A DNA stretch of 35,397 nt. Source: Gemmatimonadota bacterium. Its GTDB lineage: Bacteria; Gemmatimonadota; Gemmatimonadetes; Gemmatimonadales; Gemmatimonadaceae. The notes under the pieces are model-generated. The model did not search any database, had not been told where the DNA came from, and saw nothing but the letters and a program-made list of their open reading frames with translations. Positions 387 to 35,397 of this stretch are shown in pieces. The position numbers were made by a program, and so were the translations under genes. The DNA is taken from positions 1-35,397 of the forward strand of contig JAEKKK010000117.1 in NCBI GenBank assembly GCA_019510405.1. The letters run 5' to 3'. How positions within the stretch are numbered: the stretch's first letter is position 1; every line of letters begins with the position of its first letter.

Positions 387-2019
387 GTCCGGCGAGATGT
401 AGTAGAGGCGCATCGAGGGCCCGATGCGGGCGACGGGCGTGCGCCGCGCGAGCCAGCGCAGCGACGTGTCCGACCAGACGCCGGCGAGGAAGGTCTCGCT
501 CGCGGCGACCCAGCCCGTGGTGCGCTCATTAGGGTCGAGTCGACGCGCGTTGGTCAGGCCGACGGCTTCGAGGCTCGATGATCCGAAGTAGTGCACGCGC
601 ACCGAATCGATGTGTCGCGCCTTCACAGTGTCGGCGAGTCGGTAGAGGTCCTGACCCCAATCGAGATTGCTGTCGACGAGCACGCGTTCGGGCCGCGCGC
701 GGGCGACGGGATTGAAGTAGGCCAGATAGTCGGGCCACGCCTGCACGGGAATGACGAGCGTCGCAGCGAGCAGCGCAACGAGGGCGCTGCGCCGCATGAC
801 GAGCATGGTGGCCGAACCAGCGCGGTTCCACGCCGACACGACACCGCGCGCGGCGAGGATGGCGAGGAAGGGATAGATGGTGAGCACGATGCGCACGCCG
901 AGATCGACGTGCGACAGGAGTGCGATGACCAGCACGGCGCAGGTGCCCGCGAGGGGAACGACGGCGGGCCAGCGCTCGGTGCGCGCGGCCCGCGCACTCT
1001 CCACCGTCCCCACGATGGCGAGGGTGAGCAGCGGCAGCGGCGTCTTCACCGCGAGCACGACGAGGTAGTAGTACCACCAGCCGCGCTGTGACACGTGGCC
1101 GAGGAGGAAAGCGGGATGCCCGCCGCTGGCGTGCTGGAGGAACGGCCGCACACCGCGGATGAGCGCCGGCGCCGGCACCCAGACGCCGCCCGGATGGAGC
1201 GGGCCGACGTCGAAGCGATACATCGCCCAGATGATCAGCGCGGCGGCGGCGCAGCCCGCGATCGCCTCGCGCCACGGGATGGAGATCGTGTCGCGGGGCG
1301 CCGCCTCGCGAGGGAAGCGCAGGCGCGCGACCTCGCCGAACAGGAGCGCAGGAGCGAGATAGGCGAGCGCGGAGAACTTGGCCGCCGCGGCGAGCCCCAC
1401 CGCGACGCCGAAGGCGAGGGCGCGACCGGTAGTGGGCTGCTCGCGCCAGCGCATCCACGCGAAGAGGGCGGCGACGGCGAGCGCCGCGGGAGCGAGGTCA
1501 GTGCCGGCGACGCCGGCGTGCGCGAGCAGGTTGGGATTCGTCGCCGCGAAGACGACGGCGAGCGCTCCGCCGGCGGGACCAGCGACGCGCGCGCCCCAGA
1601 CGGCACACAGCGCGAGCGTGAGCCACAGAAAGGGAAGCATGCCCAGACGGGCCAGCGTGAGCATGCGGCGGTAGTGCGCGCCCTCGCCGAGCAGCGCGCG
1701 TCCCTCGCCATAGATCTTGGGTTGTCCGATCGTGCCCGCGCCGACGAGGTCCGGTCCAATCGCGTCGGCGACGCGCGCGAGGGGAGGATGGTCCAATCGC
1801 GGCGGCGACGCGCGCGAGGGGAGGATGCTGCGGCTCGTACGTATACTGGCCGCGGCTCAGCCACTCCATCCCGGCGGCGAGATGCGCGGGCTCATCCCAC
1901 ATCTGGCTGAAGACCGCGTACGTCGAGATGACGGCGAGCGTGGCCAGTGACACGACGAGGGCGGTGACTGCACGCCACCGCCCTCGGGACTTCGTGAACG
2001 GGGGCGTCGCGTCGCCCAC
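375..2019 (-). pseudogene. GT39-type membrane glycosyltransferase, frameshifted by tandem duplication
   Basis: The gene reads from a GTG at 2019 through the N-terminus (MGDATPPFTKSRG) and the acidic catalytic-type loop MWDEPAHLAAG, then loses frame. A second frame (ORF 375..1796) carries the rest: multiple hydrophobic segments and a soluble C-terminus with SNLDWGQDLYRL. These are features of dolichol/polyprenol-phosphate-sugar-dependent glycosyltransferases of the GT39/PMT-ArnT type, which transfer sugars on the outer face of the inner membrane. The break is a 37-bp direct tandem repeat (1754-1790 and 1791-1827). Removing one copy restores a continuous protein of about 535 aa. The start lies 14 nt after the peroxiredoxin stop, so the two are probably cotranscribed. 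Either this is a genuine recent mutation, possibly revertible, or an assembly error; family confidence is high. Confidence 0.8.
1754..1827. repeat. 37-bp imperfect tandem duplication inside the GT39 gene
   Basis: Two adjacent 37-bp copies (GTCCAATCGCG... to ...GAGGATG on the plus strand) differ at a single base (T at 1765, G at 1802). Because 37 is not a multiple of three, the second copy shifts the reading frame. In translation HPPLARVA(A/D)AIGP appears once in each of two frames, which is how it was noticed. Confidence 0.95.
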
Positions 2020-14191: not shown

Positions 14192-14220
14192 GGCGGGATG
14201 CGGGGATGCGGGGATGGGGG
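14192..14220. repeat. GCGGGGATG-type short repeat tract
   Basis: GCGGGATGCGGGGATGCGGGGATGG: three near-copies of an 8-9 bp unit immediately upstream of the kinase start. The same unit recurs in inverted orientation at 14424-14460 and in the three convergent intergenic palindromes elsewhere in the window. Confidence 0.8.
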
Positions 14221-14326
14221 GATTTGGACTATTGAGACGGCCCTCCATGTGGGCGAATAGACACCGGCGAGCGTAACACGGTTGTCGGGGCGAGACGGCC
14301 CACCAAACTGTCGAGGTGCAGATCCC

Positions 14327-14415
14327 TCGACTCGCTGCGCTCGCTCGGGATGACAGGGCTCTCCATGCGCTCGCTCGGGATGACAGGGCTCTCCATGCGC
14401 TCGCTCGGGACGACA
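14327..14415. repeat. 30-bp tandem repeat, about 2.5 copies
   Basis: The unit TCGCTCGGGATGACAGGGCTCTCCATGCGC occurs at 14341-14370 and 14371-14400 exactly, then partially (TCGCTCGGGACGACA) to 14415. It is preceded by a related TCGACTCGCTGCGC. The wording 'tcgactcgctgcgctcgctcgggatgaca' resembles intergenic repeats scattered in many GC-rich genomes. It lies in the divergent kinase/ispH gap, and its translation (RASAWRALS) creates a false N-terminal extension of the kinase ORF. Confidence 0.9.
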
Positions 14416-14423
14416 TGGGGCGT

Positions 14424-14460
14424 TCCGCATCCCCGCATCTCCGCATCCCCTCATTCCCGC
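14424..14460. repeat. CGCATCCCC-type short repeat tract
   Basis: CCGCATCCCCGCATCTCCGCATCCCCTCATTCCCGC, the reverse-complement orientation of the GCGGGGATG unit, just before the ispH promoter candidate. Confidence 0.75.
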
Positions 14461-19641: not shown

Positions 19642-21105
19642 ATGCCGGTGAGCGAGGCCGGCACGTCGGCGCTGCACGGATCCTTCCGCGGCGACGACGC
19701 ACCATCGCTCGACCGTGCACTCGGGCTCCGCGACCTGGTGTTGTTCAACCTGGTCGCGGTGCTCGGGCTCCGCTGGCTCGCCACGGCGGCCAGGGCGGGA
19801 CCGAGCGCCATCGCGCTCTGGCTGCTCGCCGCGCTGTTCTTCTTCGTGCCGCAGGGACTCGTCGTCACCGAGCTCTCGTCGCGCTTCCCCGAAGAAGGCG
19901 GCATCTACCAGTGGACCAAGCGCGCCCTCGGCGAGCGACACGGATATGTGTGCGGGTGGTGCTACTGGGTCAACAACGTCCTGTACTATCCGAGTCTGCT
20001 CATGTCGACCGCCGTCATCGCGACGTATGCGATCGGCAAGGGCGATTCGGCGCTCGCGTCGAGCTGGACGTACGTGCTCTCGGTGACGCTGGCATGCCTG
20101 TGGCTCGCCGTGCTGCTCAACATCGTCGGCGTGGGCACCGGCAAATGGCTCCAGAACGCCGGCGGGATCGGCTCCTACATCCCCGGCGTGATCCTCGTGG
20201 TGCTCGGCGCTGCGTTCATGATCGGCGGCCGGCCGTCGGCGAATCCGATCACGGCGCAGAACGTCGTCCCCGATCTGGCCAACTTCGATGAGCTGAACCT
20301 GTGGGCGTCGATCGCCTTCGCCTTCGCCGGCCTCGAGCTGTCGAGTGCGATGGGCGGCGAGGTGCGGAACCCGCGCCGCACGCTGCCGCGCGCGATCCTC
20401 ATCTCCGCGCCGCTCATCGCCGCGGCGTACGTGCTCGGGACGGGTGCACTGCTGCGGCTCGTCCCGAAGGGCGACATCAGCGTCGTGTCGGGCTTCCTGC
20501 AGGGGATCGACGTCGGCGCGCGCACACTCGGGCCCGGACTCGCCTGGCTCGCGCCGCTCGCCGCGATCGCCTACACGCTCGGCAACATCGGTGGCGTCGG
20601 TGCATGGCTCACCGGGCCGGCGCGCGTCGCCTTCGCGATCGGGCTCGATAGCTATTTCCCGCCCGCGTTCGGGAAGATCCACCCGCGGTGGAAGACGCCG
20701 TACGTGGCGATCATCGTGCAGGCCGCGCTGGCGACGGTCTTCCTCTTCCTCTCCGTGCTCGGCAAGGGAACGACGGTGGAGAAGGCGTACCTCATCATTC
20801 TCGACACGCAGCTGCTCATCTACTTCATCCCGTACGTCTACCTCTTCATCGCCTTCCTGCTGCACCGGCGCACCGAGGCACCCGTCGATACGATCCGCGT
20901 GCCGGGCGGCGCAGCGGGTGCATGGCTCGTGGGGCTGAGCGGTCTGCTCGTCACGCTGTTCGCGATGGGCGTGGCCATGGTGCCGCCAGGCGACACGGAT
21001 CCCTTGCTCTTCGAGCTGAAGGTGATCGGCGGCGCGCTGGCGTTCGTGGCGCTCGGCGGGGTGGTGTATTGGAGGCGGAGACGAGGGGATGCGGGGATGA
21101 GGTGA
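19642..21105 (+). CDS. APC-superfamily amino acid permease
   Basis: 487 aa with about 12 membrane segments. The first helix region RDLVLFNLVAVLGLRWLATAA and the FPEEGGIYQWTKRALG segment are typical of amino acid/polyamine permeases (APC family, close to glutamate/GABA-antiporter and PotE-like members). EVRNPRRTLPRAI after helix 6 is also a family signature. It should import or exchange amino acids or amines at the inner membrane; the substrate is not readable. The last residues (RRGDAGMR) are encoded by the left arm of the downstream repeat palindrome, so the C-terminus has been rewritten by the repeat. Confidence 0.88.
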   Translation: MPVSEAGTSALHGSFRGDDAPSLDRALGLRDLVLFNLVAVLGLRWLATAARAGPSAIALWLLAALFFFVPQGLVVTELSSRFPEEGGIYQWTKRALGERHGYVCGWCYWVNNVLYYPSLLMSTAVIATYAIGKGDSALASSWTYVLSVTLACLWLAVLLNIVGVGTGKWLQNAGGIGSYIPGVILVVLGAAFMIGGRPSANPITAQNVVPDLANFDELNLWASIAFAFAGLELSSAMGGEVRNPRRTLPRAILISAPLIAAAYVLGTGALLRLVPKGDISVVSGFLQGIDVGARTLGPGLAWLAPLAAIAYTLGNIGGVGAWLTGPARVAFAIGLDSYFPPAFGKIHPRWKTPYVAIIVQAALATVFLFLSVLGKGTTVEKAYLIILDTQLLIYFIPYVYLFIAFLLHRRTEAPVDTIRVPGGAAGAWLVGLSGLLVTLFAMGVAMVPPGDTDPLLFELKVIGGALAFVALGGVVYWRRRRGDAGMR

Positions 21106-21197
21106 TGCGGGGATGTGGGAAGACGAACGGCCTCGGGAGGCAGGTGCTTCCCGAGGCCGTTCCGCATCTCCACATCACCTCATCTCCGCATCCCCGC
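21084..21197. terminator. Palindromic element A between convergent genes
   Basis: Perfect 13-bp stem AACGGCCTCGGGA (21126-21138) / TCCCGAGGCCGTT (21149-21161) with a 10-nt loop. Outside it, about 34 bp of left arm (GGGGATGCGGGGATGAGGTG...) is an imperfect inverted copy of the right arm, giving a palindrome of about 110 bp. It lies exactly between the permease and diguanylate cyclase stops, so it is best read as a bidirectional terminator made from a repeat. The T-tract is short. Confidence 0.7.
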
Positions 21198-23111
21198 TCA
21201 CGCCAGCATTCCATCCTCAAATGCCCGATGCAGTCCGCGGCCGCTGCGCTTCGCGGCGTACATCGCGACGTCGGCGTAGCGCATGATCTCGTCGAGACCG
21301 CCGGTGAGCGTGGACGCGCTGCCGACGCTCGCCGAGATCGTGACGTCGCCCATCGCGAGCGAGAAGGGGAAGGCCATCTGCTCGCGGATCCGCTCGACCA
21401 GCACCTCGGCGCAGCTCGCCGAGTCGGGATCCTCGACGAGGATCGCGAACTCGTCGCCGCCCAGCCGCGCCACCGTGTCGGTCGACCGCGCGCACGCGCG
21501 CAACCGGCCGGCGATGAGGGCGAGCAGCCGGTCGCCCTCGGCGTGGCCGAACGAGTCGTTGACCTGCTTGAAGTCGTCGAGGTCGAGGTAGAGCACCGTG
21601 ACGGCGTGGCCCTGACGCCGCGCGAGCGTGATGGCGTGCATCACGCGGTCGTGGAACAGCGCGCGGTTCGCGAGCCCGGTGAGCGGGTCGTGGAAGGCCT
21701 GGTGCGCGAGCTGGTCGAGCAGCGCCTTGCGCTCGCCGACGTCGCGCGCGGTGAGCACCAGCCCGCCGACGGATTCGTCCGCGAGCAGATTGCTCGAGAT
21801 GGCCTCGACCTCGACGTCCTCGCCGTCGGGTCGCCGCATCCGCCACTCCACCAGCGGCGAGACGCCGGGCAGGTTGGTCGTCATCTCGATGAACGAGGCG
21901 ACGCGGCTGGAATCCTCCGGATGGCTGAGCGCCGAGAGGGCGACGCCGATGAGCGACTCCGGGCTGTAGCCGATGATCCGCGACGCCGACGAGCTGGCGA
22001 ACTGGATCAGGCCCCGCGCGTCGAGCACGAAGATCAGGTCGGACGATTGCTGCACGAGTGAGCGGAAGCGCGCCTCGCTCGCGCGGAGCGTCTCTTCGGC
22101 GACGACGATCGCCTGCTCGCGCTGCGTGAGGATCTGGCGCGCCCCGAGGAGGCACGACACGAGGATGGCGCCGAGCGCGAGCCCGCTGAGCGGCGCGACC
22201 CAGCGCTCCATCGCGACGGCGAACAGGAGAGCGTAGGTGATCCCCGCCGCGACGAAGGGGAGCGCCGGCACGAACCGGAAGCGCGGCCCCGCGGCGCGGA
22301 CACCCTCCGCCGGCTGCTGCGCCCGCAGGAAGAGCTCCGCGGCGACGACGAGCGCGATGCTCGCCGCGAGATGCAGCGCGTCGGCCCACACCGTTCCCAG
22401 CGAGCCGCCGCGCGCGAGGAGCAGGGAGCGGAACAGATCGTCCGCCACGCCGAGCGTCGCGCTCACCGCGAGCCAGGTGATCGCGGAGCGATTGCCGTCC
22501 GTCGGATGCCGAAGCAGGACGGTGACGATCGCGACCAGGATCAGCAGGTCGGCGAGCGGATACACCAGGGCAAGGGCGACGCCCAGCGGGGGCGCACCGC
22601 GGGCCGCCGTGTCGCGCAGGACGAAATACCAGAGCGCGACGCCGACCCCCGAGATGACCATCCCGGCGTCGAGCGCCAGCTTCCAGCGATCCGTCGGACG
22701 CCCGCCCGTCGGGATCGACAGGAACGCCGCGAGGGTCAGCGGATAGATCGCGAGGAGGAAGGGGTCGGCCAGGGAGACGACGGCAGCGGTCCCGCCCCCG
22801 AAATCCAGCCAGAGCGCCAGCGAACGTCCGACCACCGCGAGCGCGGCGACCGTCGTCATCAGCCGGAGTGCGCGCCGCGTGCCTCTGGCGAGAACGTCTC
22901 GCTTCGACGCGCGCCAGAAGAGCACCAGCAGCGCCACATCCAGCGCGATGAACAGGCTGGAGACCACCCGGCCGTGCGCGCCCGGGCTTCCCCCGCTCAG
23001 GCGGAGCCAGAGCAGGTAGGCAGCGGCGGCGGCGACGGAGGTCGCCGACACGGGGAGTCGCGGTGTGGGAGGGTGCGCCTGAAGGGCGCGGGGAGGGAGG
23101 AGGGTGCTCAT
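21198..23111 (-). CDS. Membrane PAS-GGDEF diguanylate cyclase
   Basis: 637 aa. About eight to ten membrane helices fill residues 20-320, then a coiled linker, a PAS domain (SEARFRSLVQQSSDLIFVLD... about 335-455) and a GGDEF domain (about 465-635) with the intact active site LGGDEF. The product-binding I-site RxxD is present as RSTD five residues before GGDEF, so feedback inhibition by c-di-GMP is expected. It makes c-di-GMP from two GTP at the inner membrane in response to an unknown signal. The ATG at 23111 is preferred over the GTG at 23129. It is divergent from the KirBac gene. Confidence 0.9.
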   Translation of the reverse strand: MSTLLPPRALQAHPPTPRLPVSATSVAAAAAYLLWLRLSGGSPGAHGRVVSSLFIALDVALLVLFWRASKRDVLARGTRRALRLMTTVAALAVVGRSLALWLDFGGGTAAVVSLADPFLLAIYPLTLAAFLSIPTGGRPTDRWKLALDAGMVISGVGVALWYFVLRDTAARGAPPLGVALALVYPLADLLILVAIVTVLLRHPTDGNRSAITWLAVSATLGVADDLFRSLLLARGGSLGTVWADALHLAASIALVVAAELFLRAQQPAEGVRAAGPRFRFVPALPFVAAGITYALLFAVAMERWVAPLSGLALGAILVSCLLGARQILTQREQAIVVAEETLRASEARFRSLVQQSSDLIFVLDARGLIQFASSSASRIIGYSPESLIGVALSALSHPEDSSRVASFIEMTTNLPGVSPLVEWRMRRPDGEDVEVEAISSNLLADESVGGLVLTARDVGERKALLDQLAHQAFHDPLTGLANRALFHDRVMHAITLARRQGHAVTVLYLDLDDFKQVNDSFGHAEGDRLLALIAGRLRACARSTDTVARLGGDEFAILVEDPDSASCAEVLVERIREQMAFPFSLAMGDVTISASVGSASTLTGGLDEIMRYADVAMYAAKRSGRGLHRAFEDGMLA

Positions 23112-27892: not shown

Positions 27893-28423
27893 ATGGCGTC
27901 TTCGCTTCGCACCCGCCCCGACACGTCGGAGTACGCATCCTTCTATCACGGCTACGTCGCTACGGTCCCCGAGGGAGACGTCGTCGCGCTCCTGCGTCAG
28001 AGCGGCCGCGAGCTGCTCGACACCGTGGCCACGATCCCCGAGGATCGCGGCGGATTCCGCTACGGCGAGGGCAAGTGGTCGATCCGCGAGGTGCTCGGCC
28101 ACATGATCGACGCCGAGCGGATCTTCACGTACCGCGCGCTGCGCATCGCGCGCGGCGACACGACGCCGCTCGCCTCGTTCGACGAGAACGAGTACACGAA
28201 GACGGCGGGCTCCGAAGCGCGCACATTGTCGAACCTGGCGCGCGAGCTCGGCGCGGTGCGCGAGGCGAGCGTTCAGCTCTTCGAGTCGTTCCCCGACGAC
28301 GCGTGGGGACGGTCCGGTGTGGCAAGCGGCAAGGACATCAGCGTGCGTGCGCTCGCCTACATCACCACGGGCCACGCGATGCATCACCTCAAGATTCTGC
28401 GGGAGCGATACGGGGTGAGGTGA
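27893..28423 (+). CDS. DinB-family protein (second copy)
   Basis: 176-aa DinB/YfiT-type four-helix bundle. The putative metal ligands are His in VLGHMIDAER and HAMHHLKILRERYG. KWSIREVLGHMIDAERIFTYR is the typical first-core motif. The role may be metal-dependent thiol or transferase chemistry; the substrate is unknown. It lies 20 bp after the lgt-like gene on the same strand and is the last gene before palindromic element B. Compared with the first DinB in the window (18392) it is clearly a different subfamily. Confidence 0.85.
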   Translation: MASSLRTRPDTSEYASFYHGYVATVPEGDVVALLRQSGRELLDTVATIPEDRGGFRYGEGKWSIREVLGHMIDAERIFTYRALRIARGDTTPLASFDENEYTKTAGSEARTLSNLARELGAVREASVQLFESFPDDAWGRSGVASGKDISVRALAYITTGHAMHHLKILRERYGVR

Positions 28424-28426
28424 CGG

Positions 28427-28513
28427 CGGTGAGTTGGTGAGTTGGTAAACGGCCTCGGGAGCTGAAAGCTTCCCGAGGCCGTTTCGCATCCCCGCATCCC
28501 CGCATCCCGCATC
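28427..28513. terminator. Palindromic element B between convergent genes
   Basis: Perfect 14-bp stem AAACGGCCTCGGGA (28447-28460) / TCCCGAGGCCGTTT (28471-28484) with a 10-nt loop in which GCT/AGC can pair. The right flank is four CGCATCCC-type units. The left flank is a different short repeat (GAGTTGGTGAGTTGGT). It has A3 on one side and T3 on the other, suiting termination in both directions between the DinB and lipoprotein stops. Confidence 0.72.
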
Positions 28514-29281
28514 TCACTTGAGAATACAGCACCCCCGCGCGCACTCGACCCAGATCGGGTCCGTCGCGTCGAACATCATCAGGTTCGACGTCTGCGCCGA
28601 GTCGCTCCCGGAGGGAGAGTTTGCGCACGTGTAGAAGTTGACGCGATTGACTCGGCCCGGCCGGAAGGGATGGTTGCACGGCTCGAAGGTGCCCGTGCCG
28701 AAGCTGGAGTGCTTGCGCGCGCCGGGTGTCGTGTCGAGCTCCTCGATGCGCCAGCTGCCGTTCTCCCCCGCGCCCGGCAGCACGATCGCGTAGTACTCGA
28801 ACTTCTTGTCGGCCTTGAAGCCGTACCGCTCCTCGTCGAGCGAGCCGCGATTGAGCGCGCGCACCGTGACCACACCGTTGGGCGGCAACGTCGTCGTCGT
28901 GATCGAGTCCTGCCGGTCGACGGCGTCGACGCGCACCTTTGTCGACTGTGAGGGCTTCGTGCCGCCGCAGCCAGGATTCCCCTTGCACGTGCGGTCCTTC
29001 TCCACGCCGCCGCCCCACTTGAGCTTCTGCACGAAGTCGTAGAACTCGTCGCCGGTGTACTGGTCGATCGGCTTGGTGAGCGCACCCGGCAGCGACGCCG
29101 AGGTGGGCGCCGCGGCCGCGACCGAGTTCGCCGGCGCCTGTGGCGGCGCACCGCCGGCCGCAGAACCGGCGCGGGCGCTGTCAGGTGCGCGCTCCTTGGA
29201 TGAGCAGGCAGTGAGCGCCGAGCCGGCGAGCAGCGCGGCGAGGCCGACGCGCACGGCCGATGGAACGAGGTATCGTCTCAC
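28514..29281 (-). CDS. Cys-rich lipoprotein of unknown function
   Basis: 255-aa precursor with a lipobox LTAC (Cys26), so the mature protein is anchored in a membrane. An Ala/Pro/Ser-rich linker of about 40 residues follows, then a folded domain with conserved-looking segments KPIDQYTGDEFYDFVQKL and NPGCGG, and a C-terminus with CARGCCILK. At least six Cys suggest disulfides or metal binding in the periplasm. No family recognised. The GTG start at 29281 is chosen because the signal peptide begins there (RRYLVPSAVRVGLAALL). It lies 65 bp downstream of the large kinase on the same strand and may be its cotranscribed partner. Confidence 0.78.
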   Translation of the reverse strand: MRRYLVPSAVRVGLAALLAGSALTACSSKERAPDSARAGSAAGGAPPQAPANSVAAAAPTSASLPGALTKPIDQYTGDEFYDFVQKLKWGGGVEKDRTCKGNPGCGGTKPSQSTKVRVDAVDRQDSITTTTLPPNGVVTVRALNRGSLDEERYGFKADKKFEYYAIVLPGAGENGSWRIEELDTTPGARKHSSFGTGTFEPCNHPFRPGRVNRVNFYTCANSPSGSDSAQTSNLMMFDATDPIWVECARGCCILK

Positions 29282-34426: not shown

Positions 34427-34807
34427 ATGCGGCACACCCTCAAGCTCAACGACGTCATCCTCGGCCACTCTCTGCTCGAGGAAGTGGACGCGGTCGATCG
34501 GCGGGTGTGGGGCCAGTTCCATCCCGGATTCGGCTACGAGCTCGTGCAGCCGATCTTCCGCCTCTTCAGCGAGGCCACGCCGATGCCGGGCGGCGAGCCG
34601 CGCGACGAGATCAAGCTCGCCCGCTATTTCGCCGCGCGCGATCAGCTCCCGCTCCGCCTCGAGGACGACCGCGGCCGCACCATCGAGACCGCCGCGATCC
34701 ACATTGCCGACTACAGCCTGGAGCGCGGCCCCGGCGCCATCTCACTGGACGTGCTCGTGCCGGACGATGCGTACTGGGAGAAGCGCGGGGGTGTGGGGAT
34801 GAGGTGA
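34427..34807 (+). CDS. Hypothetical protein, 126 aa
   Basis: Soluble 126-aa protein with no signal or membrane segment. It begins MRHTLKLNDVILGHSLLEEVD, then VWGQFHPGFGYELVQPIFRLF and LPLRLEDDRGRTIETAAIHI, an alpha/beta pattern ending in a strand-rich half. I recognise no family. ATG 34427 follows GGGAG by about 6 nt, so this start is preferred to the track's 34322, which overlaps the GNAT gene. The last six residues (GGVGMR) come from the GGGGATGAGGTG arm of palindromic element C, as with the permease C-terminus. Confidence 0.75.
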   Translation: MRHTLKLNDVILGHSLLEEVDAVDRRVWGQFHPGFGYELVQPIFRLFSEATPMPGGEPRDEIKLARYFAARDQLPLRLEDDRGRTIETAAIHIADYSLERGPGAISLDVLVPDDAYWEKRGGVGMR

Positions 34808-34889
34808 TGCGGCGATGCGGAAGGGCCTCGGGATGCACGAGATTCCCGAGGCCGTTCGTCTTTCCGCATCCCCTCACCCCCGCATCCCC
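34795..34889. terminator. Palindromic element C between convergent genes
   Basis: Perfect 10-bp stem GGCCTCGGGA (34824-34833) / TCCCGAGGCC (34844-34853) with a 10-nt loop. The left arm GGGGATGAGGTGATGCGGCGATGCGG and right arm CCGCATCCCCTCACCCCCGCATCCCC are imperfect inverted copies. It sits between the hypothetical gene and the DUF3224 gene, in the same convergent setting as elements A and B. Confidence 0.68.
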
Positions 34890-35273
34890 TCATCCCCGCA
34901 GTTCGTAGTCGATCGTGTAGTAGTGCTTCTTCTCCACGATCTCGATGCCGATCGTCCCCGTGATTCCCGTGAGCTGCCCCGTCCCCGAGCCGGGCACGAT
35001 GACGACGTCGAGTGACTGCCCCTCGGCGTTGCGCAGGCCACGGTGCGCGAAGAGAAAGCTCCCCGCCTTGCCGTGCAGCGTGCCGGTGAGCCGGTCGATC
35101 GCGACGTAGACGGCCGCTCCCGTCAGCGGCTCGTGCGCCGCGAGCATCTCTCCGTTCGCCACGGCCTCCAGGTCGCCGTGGAACTCCTTGTACAACGTCA
35201 TCCGCGCGACCGGCGCATCGTCGGCGGTCTGCTGCGGCGTGATGGTGACGTCGAAGGTGCCCTTTCCGTGCAT
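34890..35273 (-). CDS. DUF3224-family protein
   Basis: 127 aa. It shows the DUF3224 pattern: MHGKGTFDVTITPQ at the start, VYVAIDRLTGTLHGKAGSF in the middle, VIVPGSGTGQLTGITGT and a final HYYTIDYEL strand. The family forms a small beta-barrel of unknown function; allene-oxide-cyclase-like folds are the closest analogy. No signal peptide. GGAG 6 nt before ATG 35273 fixes the start; the track ORF to 35373 runs through repeats and is rejected. Confidence 0.88.
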   Translation of the reverse strand: MHGKGTFDVTITPQQTADDAPVARMTLYKEFHGDLEAVANGEMLAAHEPLTGAAVYVAIDRLTGTLHGKAGSFLFAHRGLRNAEGQSLDVVIVPGSGTGQLTGITGTIGIEIVEKKHYYTIDYELRG

Positions 35274-35290: not shown

Positions 35291-35323
35291 ATCGGTGAAC
35301 AGTGATCGGTGAACGGTGATCGG
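35291..35323. repeat. 14-bp tandem repeat
   Basis: ATCGGTGAACAGTG (35291-35304) and ATCGGTGAACGGTG (35305-35318) are adjacent near-identical copies followed by a partial ATCGG. It lies upstream of the DUF3224 gene. Function unknown. Confidence 0.8.
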
Positions 35324-35337
35324 TTTACTGCGTCAAC

Positions 35338-35397
35338 TGGGCACTGCCGCGGCGTGATTGGCCGGCACACCAACCAATCACGCCGCGGCAGTGCCCA
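35338..35397. repeat. Perfect 24-bp inverted repeat at window end
   Basis: TGGGCACTGCCGCGGCGTGA... (35338-35361) is followed by a 12-nt spacer and its exact reverse complement (35374-35397), which is also the last base of the window. It could be a strong intrinsic hairpin, a mobile-element end, or an assembly fold-back at a contig break. Confidence 0.95.

What the first reader, a model, noticed from the sequence alone, without database searches (positions are those of the whole stretch)
21084..21197. Repeat-derived palindromes occupy all three well-spaced convergent gaps
Elements A (21084), B (28427) and C (34795) share the core GGCCTCGGGA/TCCCGAGGCC and GCGGGGATG / CATCCCCGC arms. Each lies between two stop codons facing each other. 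In element A the arms make an imperfect palindrome of about 110 bp. This looks like a family of dispersed repeats used as bidirectional terminators, or a REP-like element that prefers terminators as landing sites.
Basis: partly seen in the sequence, partly recalled or inferred. Interest (0 to 1): 0.6.

Follow-up and report, generated by a model that had tools for sequence, protein, structure and literature searches.

The report
Repeat-flanked hairpins between converging genes
In one small group of uncultured soil bacteria, the short gaps where two genes run towards each other often hold the same DNA hairpin, flanked on both sides by 8-letter tandem repeats; it most likely marks the end of transcription in both directions, and its flanking repeats have been replaced between related species.

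Summary
Elements A, B and C fill the window's three convergent gaps of 60 bp or more. They belong to a dispersed family: 55 exact GGCCTCGGGA...TCCCGAGGCC hairpins in this 3.74-Mb Gemmatimonadota draft genome (0 with the pattern reversed).

In 50 fetched copies: 31 convergent, 15 tandem, 1 divergent, 3 at contig ends, none inside genes (convergent versus other gaps, Fisher p = 1e-16). The median distance from stop codon to hairpin is 41 bp.

The two sides of one hairpin can differ (B does). The arms run G-rich into the hairpin and C-rich out of it.

The core occurs in 2 of 10 genus members. At orthologous gaps the arms differ, and the hairpin is often replaced by another hairpin or an ordinary terminator.

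Best reading: a REP-like dispersed palindrome working as a bidirectional transcript end, with a weak U-tract and C-rich flanks that may load Rho. No RNA data exist here, so function is inferred. REP membership is incomplete: a Y1 transposase is present in exactly the same two genomes, but it is not flanked by the core, and there is no consistent GTAG/CGTC tag.

The parts
21083..21119 (+). Element A left arm: 8-bp array (GCGGGGAT/GAGGGGAT/GAGGTGAT)n; the stop codon of the left gene (21103-21105) lies inside it
21126..21161 (.). Element A hairpin: AAC-GGCCTCGGGA-GGCAGGTGCT-TCCCGAGGCC-GTT
   Evidence: -36.9 kcal/mol for the 53-nt core region, z -6.3
21161..21197 (-). Element A right arm: 8-bp array, C-rich on + strand
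28428..28445 (+). Element B left arm: (GGTGAGTT)n, a different octamer class from its right arm
28447..28484 (.). Element B hairpin: AAAC-GGCCTCGGGA-GCTGAAAGCT-TCCCGAGGCC-GTTT
28485..28513 (-). Element B right arm: (CATCCCCG)n 8-bp array
34784..34820 (+). Element C left arm: 8-bp array; encodes the C-terminal residues and stop of the left gene
34821..34856 (.). Element C hairpin: AAG-GGCCTCGGGA-TGCACGAGAT-TCCCGAGGCC-GTT
34864..34900 (-). Element C right arm: 8-bp array (CCGCATCC/CCTCACCC)n
19648..21105 (+). Gene left of A: amino-acid permease (AA_permease_2)
21198..23051 (-). Gene right of A: PAS-GGDEF diguanylate cyclase
27893..28423 (+). Gene left of B: DinB_2 family protein
28514..29254 (-). 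Gene right of B: protein of unknown function, with orthologues in G153, G022 and G151
34427..34807 (+). Gene left of C: unknown protein, orthologues in most genus members
34890..35273 (-). Gene right of C: DUF3224 protein

Best explanation
The element is a modular, two-way transcript-end signal. Its centre is a sequence-conserved 10-bp stem, GGCCTCGGGA/TCCCGAGGCC, usually extended outwards by AAC/GTT and inwards by a GC/GC pair around a four-base loop. It sits about 40 nt after a stop codon, or after two facing stop codons. Transcription arriving from either side folds the same hairpin, which ends transcription or fixes the 3' end of the message. The U-tract is short (GTT or GTTT). Just downstream on either strand lies about 40 nt of C-rich, G-poor RNA, which probably serves as a back-up Rho loading site for transcripts that read through; such transcripts would be trimmed back to the hairpin. 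The core spread as a REP-like dispersed repeat in one lineage and replaced earlier terminators at individual gaps. The flanking octamer arrays turn over independently of the core. SHOWN here: family, anatomy, placement, polarity, turnover at orthologous sites. INFERRED: termination, Rho back-up, spread by copying.
For: 55 exact copies, control 0. 31 convergent, 15 tandem, 1 divergent, 0 inside genes; convergent versus other gaps of 60 bp or more Fisher p 1.4e-16; stop-to-core median 41 bp, IQR 35-48. In tandem gaps the element lies 26-80 bp after the upstream gene's stop. Folds are far below shuffles on both strands. T is enriched at tail positions 2-4 (0.89, 0.64, 0.50). The downstream strand has 48% C and 13% G. 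Five pair changes that keep pairing occur among 13 variant copies in G000. At the orthologous convergent gap B, G022 and G151 carry unrelated ordinary hairpins, in G151 AAAGGGCGGATGCG...CGCATCCGCCCTTTT. At other orthologous gaps G056 has the core, another palindrome or arrays only. A Rho RNA-binding domain is encoded in G000, G056 and G064. Rho back-up at weak intrinsic terminators and trimming of Rho-terminated ends back to stable structures are reported in PMC12350095.
Against: There is no transcript data. The U-tract is weak: mean 3.0 T in the first 8 nt, and only 29% have 4 or more. The simple terminator scan did not call these sites. One copy, L024, is called divergent, and an inverted pair of arrays without a core lies in a divergent gap in the window (14195-14460). 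Stem mismatches are more frequent (10) than compensated pairs (5) among changed pairs. The exact 10-mer stem is more conserved than a plain terminator would need.
Confidence: 0.62

Rival explanations
1. A REP-type selfish palindrome mobilised by the Y1 (RAYT-type) transposase; it accumulates after stop codons because those sites are harmless or are preferred targets, with no required role in termination.
For: PF01797 is found in exactly the two of ten genus members that carry the core. Di Nocera 2013 (PMC3733652) reports REPs mainly in convergent and unidirectional gaps close to 3' ends. Loops retain a shared consensus near GGCAGAAGCT, which suggests descent from one sequence. About half of the G000 sites with a G056 orthologue lack the core there.
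Against: No core-like palindrome flanks the Y1 genes in the 1.8-3.3 kb loci. Only 7 of 50 copies matched the CGTC-like tag test, and none showed a consistent tag. Copies with the same loop have different arms, so no whole-element recent copies were seen. G000 and G056 may share one ancestor, so the co-occurrence may be a single event.
Confidence: 0.25
2. A DNA-level element: a cruciform or gyrase-binding palindrome that relieves the supercoiling that builds up between convergent genes, as proposed for E. coli REP/BIME.
For: Convergent-gap preference, near-perfect palindrome, and stem sequence kept beyond what pairing needs.
Against: 15 of 47 copies with two flanking genes lie in tandem gaps right after one stop. 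Orthologous sites in relatives have a short ordinary terminator instead. Arms of different class cannot extend a cruciform.
Confidence: 0.08
3. The octamer arrays are G-quadruplex or multi-frame stop-codon signals; the hairpin is secondary.
For: Arms hold 2.1 TGA per 40 nt (0.64 when shuffled, 0.53 after other stops), and 29% have stops in all three frames (6% shuffled, 4% null). Heptamer G-rich arrays at stops in Xanthomonas form G-quadruplexes (PMC4692102).
Against: Only 20% of G000 arms fit a canonical G4 motif. The classes in G056 (CAGTGACT, GCGCGGGC and others) do not share G-runs or TGA consistently.
Confidence: 0.1
4. A DNA uptake sequence used in inverted pairs as terminators, as in Neisseria and Haemophilus.
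For: A fixed 10-mer occurs as inverted pairs between convergent genes.
Against: Of 109 exact 10-mers in 530 kb, 100 are paired and only 2 are singles in genes, no more than shuffled 10-mers (mean 5.3). Uptake sequences occur as hundreds to thousands of motifs, also inside genes (PMC2346458 abstract).
Confidence: 0.01

Closest known systems
REP elements (GTAG- and CGTC-tagged palindromes; Di Nocera 2013, PMC3733652)
   Same: 20-40 bp palindrome, tens of copies, extragenic, near 3' ends in convergent and unidirectional gaps; genome has a Y1/RAYT-type transposase
   Different: No consistent GTAG/CGTC tag; transposase gene not flanked by the palindrome; usually embedded in 8-bp tandem arrays
Heptameric G-rich tandem repeats of Xanthomonas and Nostoc (Rehm 2015, PMC4692102)
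   Different: 8-bp not 7-bp units; several unrelated unit sequences in one genome; a conserved hairpin lies between the two arrays; only about 20% fit a G4 motif
Bidirectional intrinsic terminators
   Same: GC-rich hairpin about 40 nt after the stop; A-tract/U-tract symmetry (AAAC...GTTT); such hairpins occupy the orthologous gap in related genomes
   Different: Stem sequence fixed across roughly 70 sites; weak U-tract; array arms
DNA uptake sequences paired as terminators (Pasteurellaceae, Neisseriaceae)
   Same: Conserved 10-mer as inverted pairs at gene ends
   Different: No singletons in genes

Membership tests
REP element (Di Nocera 2013) | Small palindrome (20-40 bp), high copy, extragenic | tested here: met
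   30-36 bp hairpin, 55 exact copies, 0 of 50 inside genes
REP element (Di Nocera 2013) | Unpaired GTAG or CGTC tag at one end | tested here: not met
   7 of 50 copies match a CGTC-like tag at one foot, 43 none; feet listed. The test pattern was strict about position and some feet show a shifted CGTC.
REP element (Di Nocera 2013) | RAYT (Y1_Tnp) gene in the genome (GTAG REPs) | tested here: met
   PF01797 in G000 (2) and G056 (1), absent in the 8 other genus members
REP element (Di Nocera 2013) | RAYT gene flanked by the same palindromes | tested here: not met
   No core in L226-L228; the palindromes near these genes are unrelated to the core
Intrinsic terminator | Stable GC-rich hairpin after the stop codon | tested here: met
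Intrinsic terminator | U-rich tract after the hairpin | tested here: inconclusive
   T enriched at positions 2-4, mean 3.0 T in 8 nt, 29% with 4 or more; not called by the consensus scan
Intrinsic terminator | RNA 3' ends at the hairpin | not testable with these tools
   No transcriptome is available for this genome
Rho-dependent terminator | C-rich, G-poor unstructured RNA before the release zone | tested here: inconclusive
   48% C and 13% G in the 40 nt after the hairpin on either strand; the stretch is short; Rho use not tested
Rehm-type G-rich tandem repeat | 7-bp unit of GGGNATC type able to form G4 | tested here: not met
   Period 8 in 45 arrays, at most 2 arrays for any other period tested from 5 to 13; 20% G4
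DNA uptake sequence | Many single copies, including inside genes | tested here: not met
   2 singles in genes in 530 kb
Rfam RNA family | Match above gathering score | tested here: not met
   0 matches in window, L031 and L054

The most novel reading that the evidence does not exclude
The 8-bp arrays are a class of their own: a lineage-specific 3'-UTR satellite of Gemmatimonadaceae. The period (8) and the strand polarity are fixed while the unit sequence is free and changes between species at the same gene junction. This would imply an unknown process that writes or copies octamer arrays next to stop codons, into which different palindromes settle. Gemmatirosa kalamazoonensis shows a version with no separate core: inverted (GAGGGCAG)n arrays close to stops.
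Probability: 0.3. Interest if true: 0.75.

Novelty: new variant of a known kind. Interest (0 to 1): 0.5.

Why it matters
It gives a clear natural experiment on how bacterial gene ends evolve. At the same convergent junctions in related species, one finds the conserved hairpin, another palindrome or a plain terminator, with arrays of unrelated octamers. That makes it directly testable whether dispersed REP-like palindromes are taken over as terminators, and whether C-rich arrays serve Rho. A fixed 8-bp period with free sequence is not explained by any process that I know of. I found no description of it for this phylum in the open library.

Tried and rejected
Uptake sequence: rejected, no singletons. 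Single ancestral whole-element transposon: not supported, since copies with the same loop have different arms. Arms as mere stem extension: rejected, since in 13 of 37 copies with both arms classified the two classes differ. G-quadruplex as the common property: rejected, 20% fit. Arms as a property of the gene they follow: rejected, since in tandem gaps the start-side arm is as periodic (10 of 15) and as polar (14 of 15) as the stop-side arm. Known RNA family: none. Loop-flanking pair 11/20 as evidence of covariation: not supported, 22 of 41 paired against 20 by shuffle. Integron attC: considered because of AAC...GTT; the feet do not read as GTTRRRY by eye, not formally tested. Core elsewhere: absent in the other order-level relatives sampled; single hits in many other taxa lack array arms in the 16 listed. 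A viral-contig search with one flanking protein found nothing. My first simple gene caller misjudged some orientations and was replaced.

Full report
WHAT IS THERE. Each lies between two stop codons facing each other. These are the only three convergent gaps of 60 bp or more in the window; the other convergent junctions overlap or are about 22 bp long. The exact 10-mer is found nowhere else in the window.

FAMILY. The window is contig C195 of a 3,744,049-bp draft genome (327 contigs, 77% complete, 69% GC in the fetched stretches). The paired pattern occurs 55 times exactly and 0 times when read backwards. I fetched 46 stretches totalling 530 kb, holding 50 copies. A relaxed search found 13 variant hairpins within 4 changes, one of them (L017:4286) inside a called gene.

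ANATOMY. The stem is nearly invariant: 49 of 62 distinct hairpins are exact. Changed pairs include 5 compensated, 6 wobble and 10 mismatched. The loop is variable but keeps a consensus near GGCAGAAGCT. Outside the stem come AAC/GTT, then the arms. The arms are 8-bp tandem arrays: 76 of 99 arms have best period 8 or 16. In the 530-kb sample there are 45 arrays of period 8 against at most 2 for any other period tested from 5 to 13; 34 of the 45 touch a core and none lies inside a gene. Several classes exist: (GCGGGGAT)n, (GGTGAGTT)n, (GGGAATGA)n and (GTGAACGG)-like, the last often with an extended GGCC stem. In 13 of the 37 copies with both arms classified, the two arms differ in class. Polarity is strict: read into the hairpin, GC skew is +0.56 and positive in 96% of arms, against -0.02 and 40% in the 43 nt after other stop codons. 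So each strand downstream of the hairpin is C-rich and G-poor (48% C, 13% G). Arms also hold 2.1 TGA per 40 nt against 0.64 in shuffles.

PLACEMENT. With a GC3-trained gene caller of my own, 31 copies are convergent, 15 tandem, 1 divergent and 3 at contig ends; none of the 50 is inside a gene. Among gaps of 60 bp or more, 31 of 50 convergent gaps, 15 of 156 tandem and 1 of 69 divergent hold a copy (Fisher convergent versus other, p = 1.4e-16; tandem versus divergent, p = 0.03). The sample was drawn around copies, so these fractions are not genome-wide rates; the contrast between gap types is what counts. The median distance from stop codon to core is 41 bp (IQR 35-48). In tandem gaps the element sits right after the upstream gene's stop, yet keeps both arms. 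The arrays often begin at, or include, the stop codon: in A and C the last residues and the stop of the left gene are array sequence.

DISTRIBUTION AND TURNOVER. The core is in 2 of 10 genus members, G000 and G056 (29 exact copies), and in none of the other order-level relatives sampled. G056 corresponds to the named record QHVE01, Gemmatimonadetes bacterium AG11 (matching positions). G056 has the same core but mostly other octamers, such as (CAGTGACT)n and (GCGCGGGC)n; (GCGGGGAT)n is essentially private to G000, while (GGTGAGTT)n occurs in both. Orthologous junctions were compared directly. Gap C in G056 has the same two genes around a (CTCAGTGA)n array and no hairpin. Gap B in G022 has an unrelated hairpin, in G151 a canonical two-way terminator AAAGGGCGGATGCG...CGCATCCGCCCTTTT, and in G153 no evident hairpin. 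Of eight further G000 sites with clear G056 orthologues, four have the core or a decayed core there (L019, L025, L026, L056), one a different 80-bp palindrome with GGTGAGTT arms (L022), one arrays without the core (L027) and two other hairpins (L036, L053). L054/L090 share the core with different arms; at L060/L097 G056 has a plain short hairpin. Thus something able to form a hairpin is nearly always kept, while its sequence and arms turn over.

GENERALITY. Gemmatirosa kalamazoonensis (G064, identified through NZ_CP007129) has inverted (GAGGGCAG)n/(CTGCCCTC)n palindromes without the core, close to stops in most of the 12 examined (5 convergent, 6 tandem, 0 divergent, 1 edge by a rough caller). 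Octamer arrays are therefore not tied to the GGCCTCGGGA core.

MECHANISM. The best reading is a two-way transcript end. Shown: stable folding on both strands, fixed spacing after stops, ordinary terminators at the orthologous site in relatives, and some pairing-preserving changes. Inferred: termination itself. The U-tract is weak (mean 3.0 T in 8 nt), so I suggest a Rho back-up acting on the C-rich arm, with trimming back to the hairpin. Both behaviours are documented in other bacteria (PMC12350095), and Rho is encoded here. Compensated changes can also arise by template switching at palindromes, so they are not proof of selection.

ORIGIN. A shared loop consensus and a lineage-limited spread suggest copying from one source. 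A Y1 (RAYT-type) transposase gene is present in exactly the two genus members with the core, but the core does not flank it and the REP tags are not consistently present. I therefore call it REP-like, not a REP. The near-invariant stem against a diverse loop suggests sequence-specific constraint or homogenisation beyond pairing.

CLOSEST KNOWN. REPs (PMC3733652) match the placement. The heptameric G-rich arrays of Xanthomonas (PMC4692102) match the arms: within 50 bp of stops, sense-strand G-rich, often inverted pairs. The combination of octamer array, conserved hairpin and octamer array, with free exchange of octamer sequence, was not found in the papers searched.

LIMITS. Gene calls are computed, not curated. 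The genome is a draft metagenome assembly. No transcript data exist. The paper library holds open-licence papers only.

Noticed in passing
window 14195-14460: Divergent gap (protein kinase / LytB) with inverted GCGGGGAT arrays flanking three 30-bp copies of CTCGCTGCGCTCGCTCGGGATGACAGGGCT and no core: an exception to the 3'-end rule.
   Followed up: partly
window 35291-35397: A (ATCGGTGAACAGTG)n array followed by a 23-bp inverted repeat TGGGCACTGCCGCGGCGTGATTGG...CCAATCACGCCGCGGCAGTGCCCA at the contig end; another palindrome next to the GTGAACGG-type array.
   Followed up: no
G064 (Gemmatirosa kalamazoonensis), L182-L201: At least 12 distinct inverted octamer palindromes (GAGGGCAG)n..(CTGCCCTC)n at gene ends; loops often contain CTAACG or TTCG-like sequence.
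   Followed up: partly
G056 loci L230, L240, L241, L242, L244: A second, about 80-bp palindrome GAACGGCCCTGGCTACGAACCAGCGTGGAG...CCAGGGCCGTTC sits inside the same (GGTGAGTT)n arms.
   Followed up: partly
L029:1768-2080, L037, L041, L057 and others in G000: Two more dispersed palindrome families: GGGGTCAGA (69 in 530 kb) and TCATCCCGAGCG...TCGAGGGATCTGCAC (27 in 530 kb).
   Followed up: no
window 21083-21105 and 34784-34807: The octamer array supplies the C-terminal residues (..GDAGMR, ..GGVGMR) and stop codon of the left gene; the G056 orthologue of C ends differently, so arrays change protein ends.
   Followed up: partly
window 1753-1826: Two tandem 37-bp copies (97% alike) at the start of the minus-strand gene 375-1796.
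   Followed up: no
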